Positions 39,501 through 41,810 of a DNA stretch of 64,000 bases are shown one piece after another (position 1 is the stretch's first letter; every line of letters begins with the position of its first letter). The stretch is taken from assembly GCA_003161615.1 (NCBI GenBank), contig PMOB01000026.1, positions 31,548 to 95,547 on the forward strand. The letters run 5' to 3'. The stretch comes from Actinomycetota bacterium (GTDB lineage: Bacteria; Actinomycetota; Thermoleophilia; Gaiellales; Gaiellaceae). A model generated the notes under the pieces. That model was not told where the DNA came from. It saw nothing but the letters and a program-made list of their open reading frames with translations, and searched no databases. Made by a program: the position numbers and the translations under genes.

Positions 39501-39947
39501 ATGCTTCGGCCGGCCGACCGCCAAGACATGCGCTTCCTCCGCGACATGCTGCGGCACGCCTACCACTGGCGGATCGCGGAGAATCCCGACCTCCCCGTCT
39601 TCCGCTACGTCCAAAATTGGGGACGCCGCGGTGACGGCGGCGTGATTGCCTTCGCCGGGCCGAACGTCTACGGCGCAGCCTGGTATCGGCTCTTCCCGGC
39701 GAGCATGCCCGGCTTCGGTTTCGTGGACGAGGAGACGCCGGAGCTGACAGTCGCCGTCGTCCCCAGCCACCGCGGCCACGGCACGGGAGGCGAGCTGCTC
39801 GAGGCGTTGCTCGAGCGCGCCCGCGCGGACGGCTTCGCGCGCGTCAGCCTCAGCGCCGAGCCGGGCCAGACGGGCTTCTACGAGAAGTACGGCTTCCGCG
39901 AGCACAGCCGCGAGGACGGAACCGTGAGGATGGTCGCCGACCTCTAG
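39501..39947 (+). CDS. GNAT family N-acetyltransferase
   Basis: The 148-residue protein has GNAT motif A in LTVAVVPSHRGHGTGGELLEALLERA and motif B in VSLSAEPGQTGFYEKYGFREH. The N-terminal part (MLRPADRQDMRFLRDMLRHAYHW) is of the type seen in small-molecule or protein acetyltransferases. It ends the E1-E2-VOC transcript; the stop is followed at once by the first hairpin of the 39.95-40.39 kb chain. Confidence 0.87.
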   Translation: MLRPADRQDMRFLRDMLRHAYHWRIAENPDLPVFRYVQNWGRRGDGGVIAFAGPNVYGAAWYRLFPASMPGFGFVDEETPELTVAVVPSHRGHGTGGELLEALLERARADGFARVSLSAEPGQTGFYEKYGFREHSREDGTVRMVADL

Positions 39948-39950
39948 CTC

Positions 39951-40393
39951 GCGAGAGCTTTGCTCTCGCTCGCCGGGAGAAGGAACTCCGCGGGCCGGAA
40001 GCGCGGTTCCGTCCCGCTCCGTGTTGTTTCCTGCTGGTGATGCTCTGGATGGACCGGCTACCTCGTGCGCTCGCGCGCGGCGTAGGCCGGCGCGAGCGCA
40101 GTGCGGCCTCCAGCTAAGTCGCCGCCGCAGCGGCTGTCTTAGCCTCCGGCCTCTTGCCGCACCGTGGTTCAACCGGCTCGAACCTCAGGCGGACCAGGCG
40201 GCGGCGTAACCCCCGTTACGCCGCCGCGGAGTAGCGAGCGGGCACGCCGCAGGCCTGCGCGCTCGCGACGGAAGAGCGATCACGAACCTTGCGTCAGCCC
40301 CAACGAGCTCTCCGCACGTAGCCGGCCGGAGACCCCGCTCTCCGGCCGGCGGAGTTTCTTCCCCACCTAGCGAGAGCGCAGCTCTCGCTAGGT
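39951..40393. repeat. Intergenic chain of perfect hairpins
   Basis: No gene is present. At least eight stem-loops follow one another: GCGAGAGC-TTT-GCTCTCGC (39951-39969); GGAA..CCGCG/CGCGGTTCC (39982-40010); an 11-bp TGCGCTCGCGC/GCGCGAGCGCA stem with an inner 4-bp stem (40066-40100); GCTAAG/CTTAGC enclosing GCCGC/GCGGC (40113-40142); GGTTC/GAACC (40166-40184); a 13-bp stem with loop CCCC (40198-40227); GCGAGCG/CGCTCGC (40234-40266); a 12-bp stem GCCGGCCGGAGA (40321-40350); and a 13-bp stem ACCTAGCGAGAGC with loop GCA (40365-40393). The first and last share GCGAGAGC-N3-GCTCTCGC. It may be a structured RNA, a terminator/RBS-control region of the E3 gene, or a palindromic DNA element. Confidence 0.75.
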
Positions 40394-40400
40394 TTCCAAT

Positions 40401-41810
40401 ATGGACGTTGACGTCGCTGTTCTCGGCGGTGGGCCGGGCGGGTACACCGCCGCCATCCGCGCCGTGCAGCTCGGCGCGAAGGTCGCCTGCATCGAGATGG
40501 AGCCCGAGCTCGGCGGCACATGCCTGCGCGTCGGGTGCATCCCGACGAAGGCGTGGGTGCAGACCGCGTTCGCCCTCAAGGAGGCGGAGGAGCACTTCGG
40601 AAAGTTCGGCGTCTCGGTCGGCGAGGCGAAGCTCGACTTCGCCGCCTCGAACGCCTGGAAGGACGGCGTCGTCAAGCAGATGACGTCGGGCGTCGCAGGG
40701 CTCTTCAAGGCGAACGGCGTCGAGTGGGTCAAGGGCAAGGGCACGTTCAAGGACGCGAACACGATCGCGGTCGAGGGTGGGGAGGACGTCACCTTCAAGT
40801 CTGCGATCGTCGCCACCGGCTCGTTCCCGCTCCGTCCGCCGATCGAGGGCCTCGACTCGCCGCGCTGCGTCGATTCGACGGGCCTCCTCGCCCAATCAGA
40901 GGTGCCCGCCCGGCTCGTCGTTCTCGGCGGCGGCATCATCGGCTGCGAGTTCGCCTCGATCTTCAACCGTTTCGGCTCCGAGGTGACGATCGTCGAGATG
41001 CTCGACTCACTCATCCCGCTCGAGGACGCGGACGCGGCGAAGGAGCTCGCGAAGCAGTTCGCCAAGCGCGGCATCTCCCTTCAGCTCGGCAAGCAGTGCT
41101 CGAAGGTCGAAGACGACGGCTCCCAGCTCACTGTCCACTACGGCGACGGCGAGACGGTGCAGGCCGACCTGATGCTCGTCTCCGTCGGGCGCGCTCCGCT
41201 CGTCGAGGGGCTCGGTCTAGAGGCCGCCGGCGTCGAGTTCGACAAGCGCGCAGGGATCGCGACCGATGAGCACCGCCGCACTAGCGTCCCGCACATCTAC
41301 GCGGTCGGCGACTGCGCAGGCTACTGGCAGCTCGCGCACACGGCCTTCCGCGAGGGCGAGGTCGCGGCCGAGAACGCCACCGGTCACGAGGCGACGGTCG
41401 ACGCGCGTGCAGTACCGCGGCCGATCTACACCGATCCCGAGATCGCGGGCGTCGGGCTGACCGAGGCCCAGGCGCGCGAGCAGTACGGCGACGACGTCGC
41501 CGTCGGACAGTTCCCCTGGGTCGCCAATGCGCGCGCGGTGATGCAGGACGAGACGGTCGGCTGGGTGAAGTCGATCCACGAGACGCGCTACGGCGAGCTG
41601 CTCGGCCTCATCATGGTCGGGCCGCACGTGACCGACCTGATCGAGGCGGGTGTCGTCGCGATCGACGCGGAGTCGACGGTCGAAACGGTGGCCGACGGAA
41701 TCGCGCCGCATCCGACGCTGTCGGAGGCGATCAAGGAAGCAGGGTTGGTCGCGCTGGGGCGGGCGATCCACGTCCCGAACCGCAAGCCACGCGCCAAGAC
41801 ACCGGCGTAA
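40401..41810 (+). CDS. lpdA: Dihydrolipoyl dehydrogenase (E3)
   Basis: The 469-residue flavoprotein has the FAD motif VAVLGGGPGGYTAA, redox disulfide GGTCLRVGCIPTK, NAD motif LVVLGGGIIGCEFASIF, second FAD block HIYAVGDCAG and the C-terminal dimer interface with HPTLSE. It re-oxidises lipoyl groups of E2 and reduces NAD+. ATG lies 7 bases after a 13-bp hairpin, and only the AGG of that stem could act as ribosome site. Expression may thus depend on opening the hairpin. It belongs functionally to the E1/E2 genes upstream. Tandem terminators follow. Confidence 0.95.
   Translation: MDVDVAVLGGGPGGYTAAIRAVQLGAKVACIEMEPELGGTCLRVGCIPTKAWVQTAFALKEAEEHFGKFGVSVGEAKLDFAASNAWKDGVVKQMTSGVAGLFKANGVEWVKGKGTFKDANTIAVEGGEDVTFKSAIVATGSFPLRPPIEGLDSPRCVDSTGLLAQSEVPARLVVLGGGIIGCEFASIFNRFGSEVTIVEMLDSLIPLEDADAAKELAKQFAKRGISLQLGKQCSKVEDDGSQLTVHYGDGETVQADLMLVSVGRAPLVEGLGLEAAGVEFDKRAGIATDEHRRTSVPHIYAVGDCAGYWQLAHTAFREGEVAAENATGHEATVDARAVPRPIYTDPEIAGVGLTEAQAREQYGDDVAVGQFPWVANARAVMQDETVGWVKSIHETRYGELLGLIMVGPHVTDLIEAGVVAIDAESTVETVADGIAPHPTLSEAIKEAGLVALGRAIHVPNRKPRAKTPA

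What the first reader, a model, noticed from the sequence alone, without database searches (positions are those of the whole stretch)
39951..40393. A 440-bp chain of at least eight near-perfect hairpins in front of the E3 gene
Seen directly: successive inverted repeats with stems of 8-15 bp, several perfect (13 bp with loop CCCC at 40198-40227; 12 bp at 40321-40350; 13 bp with loop GCA at 40365-40393; 11+4 bp at 40066-40100). The first and last hairpins carry the same palindrome GCGAGAGC-N3-GCTCTCGC, as if bounding one element. No ORF is convincing and no known ncRNA signature (RNase P, tmRNA, SRP) is visible. The last stem ends seven bases before the lpdA ATG and contains its only possible ribosome site. 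Inference: a structured RNA or a palindromic element controlling E3 relative to E1/E2.
Basis: partly seen in the sequence, partly recalled or inferred. Interest (0 to 1): 0.75.

Follow-up and report, generated by a model that had tools for sequence, protein, structure and literature searches.

The report
Dispersed palindromic mobile element, hairpin-ended
The "hairpin chain" before the E3 gene is one copy of an undescribed, gene-less ~450-bp mobile-type repeat of soil Thermoleophilia that lands on gene stop codons and keeps its DNA hairpins by paired mutations; it is not a dedicated switch for E3.

Summary
The hairpins are real, non-random (fold z -8.5 as RNA, -9.4 as DNA) and at the stated places. 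The segment is not specific to lpdA. It is one of 7 long and about 10 partial copies of a dispersed repeat in this 2.3-Mb genome. Related copies occur in most congeners and, as divergent subfamilies, in a second genus; relatives lack it between the GNAT gene and lpdA. Full copies are mostly 375-460 bp, gene-free and bounded by ~80-bp inverted repeats made of two or three hairpins. Ends usually coincide with TAG stop codons of flanking genes. In the end hairpins 97% of cells stay paired, 15 of 22 pairs change on both sides, and there is no G-U bias. End stems differ completely between copies, yet the outward strand mostly shows a G-N-A or G-NN-A loop closed by C-G, the class of exceptionally stable DNA mini-hairpins also found in Streptomyces telomere overhangs. 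Best reading: a non-autonomous (MITE/REPIN-like) element whose hairpins act as DNA, moved in trans by an enzyme I did not find. IS630 is essentially absent; RAYT-type transposases occur in most congeners but unlinked, and none was found in this genome. Control of E3 is at most a side effect.

The parts
39945..40394 (+). whole element (this copy), between the GNAT gene and lpdA; left TA = 39945-39946, right terminal TA not kept in this copy
   Evidence: homologous copies align over this span; end models hit 39945-40024 (+) and 40314-40394 (-); empty in relatives
39945..39947 (+). TAG: stop codon of the GNAT gene and first three bases of the element
   Evidence: sequence; same coincidence at other copies
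39946..39974 (.). hairpin A, left end hairpin (GCGAGAGC-TTT-GCTCTCGC core at 39951-39969)
   Evidence: covariation
39990..40017 (.). hairpin B, loop GCGCGG, preceded by GGAACT; second part of the left inverted repeat
40066..40100 (.). hairpin C, nearly invariant core (GTGCGCTCGCGCGCGGC..AGGCCG.C.CGAGCGC)
40105..40151 (.). hairpin D (GGCC..GCTAAG..CTTAGC..GGCC), also present in the g6 subfamily
40166..40184 (.). small stem GGTTC/GAACC whose sequence differs between copies
   Evidence: alignment
40198..40227 (.). hairpin E, 13 bp, loop CCCC
40231..40269 (.). hairpin F (loop GCA here, GAA in other own-genome copies)
40321..40350 (.). hairpin B', mirror of B in the right inverted repeat
40365..40393 (.). 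hairpin A', right end hairpin with GCA loop
39501..39947 (+). GNAT acetyltransferase gene upstream
   Evidence: Pfam Acetyltransf_1
40401..41810 (+). lpdA, dihydrolipoamide dehydrogenase (E3); native ribosome site of relatives missing here
   Evidence: Pfam Pyr_redox_2 / Pyr_redox_dim; junctions

Best explanation
The segment is one copy of a non-autonomous, mobile-type repeat family: mostly 375-460 bp, no gene, ~80-bp terminal inverted repeats each made of two or three hairpins, and a centre of further hairpins. SHOWN: dispersal; copies clustering by genome at mostly different sites; empty sites in relatives; ends abutting stop codons; hairpins kept by paired changes; a recurrent loop type at the ends. 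INFERRED: insertion at a TA inside a stop codon (the element starts with G, so TA+G restores TAG and the hit gene keeps its end). Also INFERRED: each end is recognised as an extruded or single-stranded DNA hairpin (GNA/GNNA loop on the outward strand) by an enzyme supplied in trans that I did not identify. Any effect on lpdA is local and incidental.
For: Own genome: 7 long copies (the other six 76-83% identical to this one) plus partial ones; 25 strong end repeats. Present in 10 of 15 congeners and, as related subfamilies, in several members of genus g6 and in G015. Seven G000 copies form one clade, 97/97. Empty sites: 36-48 bp at GNAT-lpdA; other sites, one fitting a TA duplication (TGCTCTAACCGAG in G002 against TGCTTTA..TACCCGAG). 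About 12 of 25 ends have the neighbour's stop codon as the element's own TAG, while TAG ends 11 of 39 genes in the window. Covariation: 96.9% of cells paired against 79.9% shuffled, 15/22 pairs with double changes, 0/500 shuffles; within G000 alone 97.3% against 78.3% Watson-Crick. Wobble cells: G-T 17, A-C 18 over whole elements. Loops: 75 distinct end hairpins with 34 distinct inner stems; inward strand TNC in 38 of 52 triloops and T-NN-C in 17 of 20 tetraloops, i.e. GNA/GNNA outward; background hairpins of the window 1 of 27. GNA/GNNA = exceptionally stable DNA hairpins (PMC4686876).
Against: No autonomous copy or transposase with these ends was found: widely spaced end pairs hold ordinary genes. 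No near-identical copies were seen, so movement does not look recent. Only one site supports the TA duplication cleanly, and this window's right end lacks the TA. Some insertions are old and shared (lpdA site in G001; L005 site in G001 and G014). Palindromes can also keep their pairing through template-switch repair without selection. Transcription was not testable.
Confidence: 0.75

Rival explanations
1. Structured RNA: the copies are transcribed and the conserved object is a multi-hairpin RNA (regulatory, mRNA-stabilising, or a terminator at gene 3' ends).
For: Strong covariation, very low RNA folding energy, position at gene 3' ends, nearly invariant core hairpin C; B' followed by TTTCTT resembles an intrinsic terminator; one G002 copy has a hairpin with a T-run as its outer end (L193).
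Against: No Rfam hit. G-T and A-C cells are equally rare (17 against 18; 5 against 10 in the ends), where RNA selection should favour G-U on one strand. End loops are GNA/GNNA, and only 3 of 17 outward tetraloops are GNRA. Hairpins that an inbound transcript meets first lack T-runs.
Confidence: 0.15
2. REP/REPIN-type element moved by a single-copy Y1 (RAYT) transposase: TAG plus an imperfect hairpin at each end would be the equivalent of the GTAG tag plus hairpin.
For: Y1_Tnp genes in 14 of 16 congeners, mostly one per genome. TAG at the 5' foot of the hairpin and inverted pairing of ends resemble GTAG repeats, which also sit downstream of genes (PMC3733652).
Against: No Y1_Tnp found in G000 or G013, both rich in copies; G010 has four Y1 genes but was not among the genomes with element hits. 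No end repeat near any of 12 Y1 loci. TAG may simply be the target stop codon. Elements are ~450 bp with multi-hairpin inverted repeats, not 20-40 bp.
Confidence: 0.2
3. Classical IS-derived MITE with TA duplication, moved by an IS630/Tc1-type enzyme as RUP or Correia elements are thought to be (that parallel is from general knowledge).
For: TA at both ends of most copies; one clean TA-duplication site; inverted repeats; short stubs TA-GCTGAGC-TA and TA-CCGGGC-TA at one site.
Against: DDE_3 absent from G000 and from all congeners but one hit in G005. The hairpin-in-repeat design and the loop rule are not features of that family as I know it. The stub motif TAGCTNAGCTA occurs at one orthologous site only.
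Confidence: 0.2
4. Domesticated chromosomal structure, e.g. a protein-binding or supercoiling-related site at gene ends, no longer mobile.
For: Pairing is conserved in diverged copies; some sites are shared between species; copies lie mostly between convergent genes or behind genes.
Against: Most sites are lineage-specific and copies cluster by genome; some congeners have none of this subfamily.
Confidence: 0.15

Closest known systems
MITEs of bacteria (RUP, Correia/NEMIS, BOX and others)
   Same: short, gene-less, inverted-repeat ends, dispersed between genes, apparent TA target
   Different: no parent transposase found; the repeats are chains of hairpins whose stems drift by paired changes; a recurrent G..A loop type; ends fused to stop codons
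REP / BIME / REPIN elements with RAYT transposases (PMC3733652, PMC3116915)
   Same: imperfect hairpins with a TAG foot, often as inverted pairs, enriched downstream of genes
   Different: 450 bp with 7-8 hairpins rather than 20-40 bp units; tag is TAG, not GTAG; no RAYT found in this genome or linked elsewhere
Streptomyces telomere palindromes (PMC4513846)
   Same: tandem palindromes whose 3'-strand hairpins are closed by sheared G:A in GCA loops
   Different: lies inside chromosomal contigs between genes, both ends inverted, many copies; no terminal-protein system was searched for
d(GCGNAGC)-type DNA mini-hairpins (PMC4686876)
   Same: GNA or GNNA loop on a C-G-closed stem
   Different: that is a physical hairpin class, not a genetic element

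Membership tests
MITE | multiple dispersed non-coding copies with terminal inverted repeats | tested here: met
MITE | target-site duplication at empty/occupied pairs | tested here: inconclusive
   one clean TA site; other sites too diverged, and this copy's right end lacks the TA
MITE | ends shared with a known autonomous insertion sequence | tested here: not met
   no TIR pair was found to enclose a transposase in the sampled genomes
IS630/Tc1-derived MITE | DDE_3 transposase in the genome or close relatives | tested here: not met
   0 in G000, 1 hit in 16 genomes
REP/REPIN with RAYT | RAYT (Y1_Tnp) gene in the same genome or flanked by the repeats | tested here: not met
   none found in G000 (95% complete); present in 14 of 16 congeners but without nearby end repeats
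REP/REPIN with RAYT | GTAG or CGTC tag at the hairpin foot | tested here: inconclusive
   TAG is kept but the preceding base varies, and TAG doubles as the stop codon
Streptomyces-type telomere | 3'-strand hairpins with sheared G:A (GNA) loops | tested here: met
   loop sequences, compared with PMC4513846; the sheared pair itself is inferred from sequence
Streptomyces-type telomere | located at replicon ends with terminal protein genes | tested here: not met
   long copies lie inside contigs between genes; terminal-protein genes were not searched
known structured RNA | match to an Rfam covariance model | tested here: not met
   only a sub-threshold 19-bit hit outside the element
known structured RNA | transcription and RNA-type pair evolution | tested here: inconclusive
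   no G-U excess; transcription not testable

The most novel reading that the evidence does not exclude
A new class of single-strand-DNA-dependent mobile element: a gene-less unit resembling two telomere-like arms placed back to back, whose ends are recognised only as folded G-N-A-loop DNA hairpins. Stem sequence is free to drift as long as it pairs, and insertion into stop codons keeps genes intact.
Probability: 0.2. Interest if true: 0.85.

Novelty: new variant of a known kind. Interest (0 to 1): 0.62.

Why it matters
Few bacterial repeats show constraint on DNA hairpin shape instead of sequence. Here stems have turned over completely while pairing, loop type and position at stop codons persist across two genera. 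If confirmed, the family is a natural test for proteins that read extruded or single-stranded hairpins. It also shows how an element can settle in a compact, gene-dense genome without breaking genes, and it warns that covariation alone does not prove an RNA.

Tried and rejected
lpdA-specific leader or riboswitch: rejected by copies elsewhere and empty sites. Known ncRNA: no Rfam hit. Plasmid, phage or viral origin: no match. Autonomous copy: the two widely spaced end pairs in g1 (G001:C247, G002:C64) and one in g6 (G020:C77) hold ordinary genes such as sensor/cyclase genes, so they are unrelated half-elements. Excision footprints: TAGCTNAGCTA occurs only at one orthologous site in two genomes. 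IS630 and Y1 enzymes: see rivals. Integron attC-like sites: GGCTAAG/CTTAGCC looked similar by eye but does not fit the attC core consensus as I know it; not pursued. No paper in the held library joins Thermoleophilia with MITEs.

Full report
OBSERVATION. Folding of 39944-40393 gives z -8.5 (RNA) and -9.4 (DNA), with no shuffle as stable. The likeness of first and last hairpin is the outer part of an imperfect terminal inverted repeat of ~75-80 bp.

WHAT IT IS. A search of the same genome (2.32 Mb, 35 contigs, 95% complete) finds the segment again in six long copies of 76-83% identity and several partial ones. A covariance model of the end repeat finds 25 strong ends and two more at contig ends. 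Ten of 15 congeners carry the element. A motif scan of 85,462 species found matches essentially only in Thermoleophilia/Actinomycetota soil MAGs, with one short contig binned as Acidobacteria; viral contigs, plasmids and phages have none. A model of the inner hairpins C+D reaches a second genus of the family, g6. Its elements, also mostly 375-460 bp, have different sequences but the same plan: an end hairpin, further hairpins in the inverted repeat, and the shared hairpin D. A third subfamily occurs in G015 of the window's own genus. Half-elements (end repeat to hairpin D) are common.

MOBILE BEHAVIOUR. The seven long G000 copies form one clade (97/97) although they sit at different loci. Relatives have the GNAT-lpdA site empty, with 36-48 bp and a ribosome site in the better aligned ones, except G001, which has a left-half copy. 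Other sites are empty in congeners too. At one site G002 reads TGCTCTAACCGAG where G000 has TGCTTTA-element-TACCCGAG, i.e. a TA duplication. At another site G000 and G001 hold elements in opposite orientation, G014 a 101-bp remnant, and G011, G004 and G006 stubs of 6-7 bp between TA and TA. So some insertions are old and decay by deletion. No near-identical copies were seen, so I do not claim present activity.

STOP CODONS. Ends in G000 read TAGCTCGCGA.. or close to it in most cases. In about 12 of 25 ends in G000 the flanking gene's in-frame stop is exactly this TAG. Relatives with empty sites mostly have a native TAG or TAA there, although at the lpdA site several have TGA. TAG ends 11 of 39 genes of the window. 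Inference: the target is a TA, and because the element begins with G, TA+G restores a stop codon.

STRUCTURE BELONGS TO DNA? In 28 ends, 96.9% of cells pair against 79.9% after shuffling; 15 of 22 pairs changed on both sides; no shuffle reaches this. Inside G000 alone, 97.3% Watson-Crick against 78.3%. Changes jump from one Watson-Crick pair to another; G-T (5) is no commoner than A-C (10) in the ends, and 17 against 18 over whole elements. RNA selection should leave G-U on one strand. The end loops are the strongest clue. Over 75 distinct end hairpins with 34 distinct inner stems, the inward strand shows T-N-C (38 of 52 triloops) or T-NN-C (17 of 20 tetraloops), nearly always closed by C-G. 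The outward, 3'-terminal strand is therefore G-N-A or G-NN-A. The g6 and G015 ends mostly obey the same rule by inspection. Ordinary hairpins of the window do so once in 27. GNA and GNNA loops define exceptionally stable DNA mini-hairpins (PMC4686876), and the GCA loops of Streptomyces telomere overhangs are closed by sheared G:A pairs on the same (3') strand (PMC4513846). Only 3 of 17 outward tetraloops are GNRA. I infer that the ends matter as folded DNA. A caution: palindromes can also homogenise their arms by template switching, which would mimic selection on pairing but would not explain the loop rule; and the hairpins are related by descent, so the counts are not independent events.

WHO MOVES IT. 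Unknown. The three widely spaced end pairs hold ordinary genes. IS630-type DDE_3 is absent from G000. Y1 (RAYT-like) genes occur in 14 of 16 congeners but were not found in G000 and are not near end repeats. A missing 5% of the G000 assembly could hide one.

lpdA. The gene order is E1 alpha - E1 beta - E2 - glyoxalase - GNAT - lpdA, all on one strand. In this genome the purine-rich ribosome site of relatives is gone and the element's last hairpin abuts the start. Expression of E3 may therefore be altered here, but as a consequence of the insertion.

NOVELTY. I found no description in the held library. It is a new family in the broad class of palindromic/MITE-like repeats, with unusual traits. 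Whether it represents a new mechanism is open.

Noticed in passing
window 40389-40401: lpdA in this genome lacks the purine-rich ribosome-binding site that its congeners have just before the start codon; the element's last stem abuts the start.
   Followed up: partly
L255 (G009:C5:52700-53450) and L033 (G014:C65): A different repeat with GTGCCAGGCAC and GACATGTC motifs sits at or beside sites of this element; it looks like a separate repeat family.
   Followed up: no
L242-L253: Diverse Y1 (RAYT-like) transposase genes, mostly one per genome, occur in 14 of 16 genomes of the genus; two genomes with many elements had none found.
   Followed up: partly
L236 (PLJR01000189.1): A 3.7-kb contig binned as Acidobacteria carries the end motif at its very end; misbinning or transfer.
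   Followed up: no
G000:C22 end (L017) and G000:C18 start (L013): Contigs break inside element copies, so copy number is underestimated and very similar copies may be lost from assemblies.
   Followed up: no
L283-L288, L290-L295 (G015): Half-elements ending just after hairpin D are frequent, often running from a stop codon to the next gene's start, as if the half were itself a unit.
   Followed up: partly
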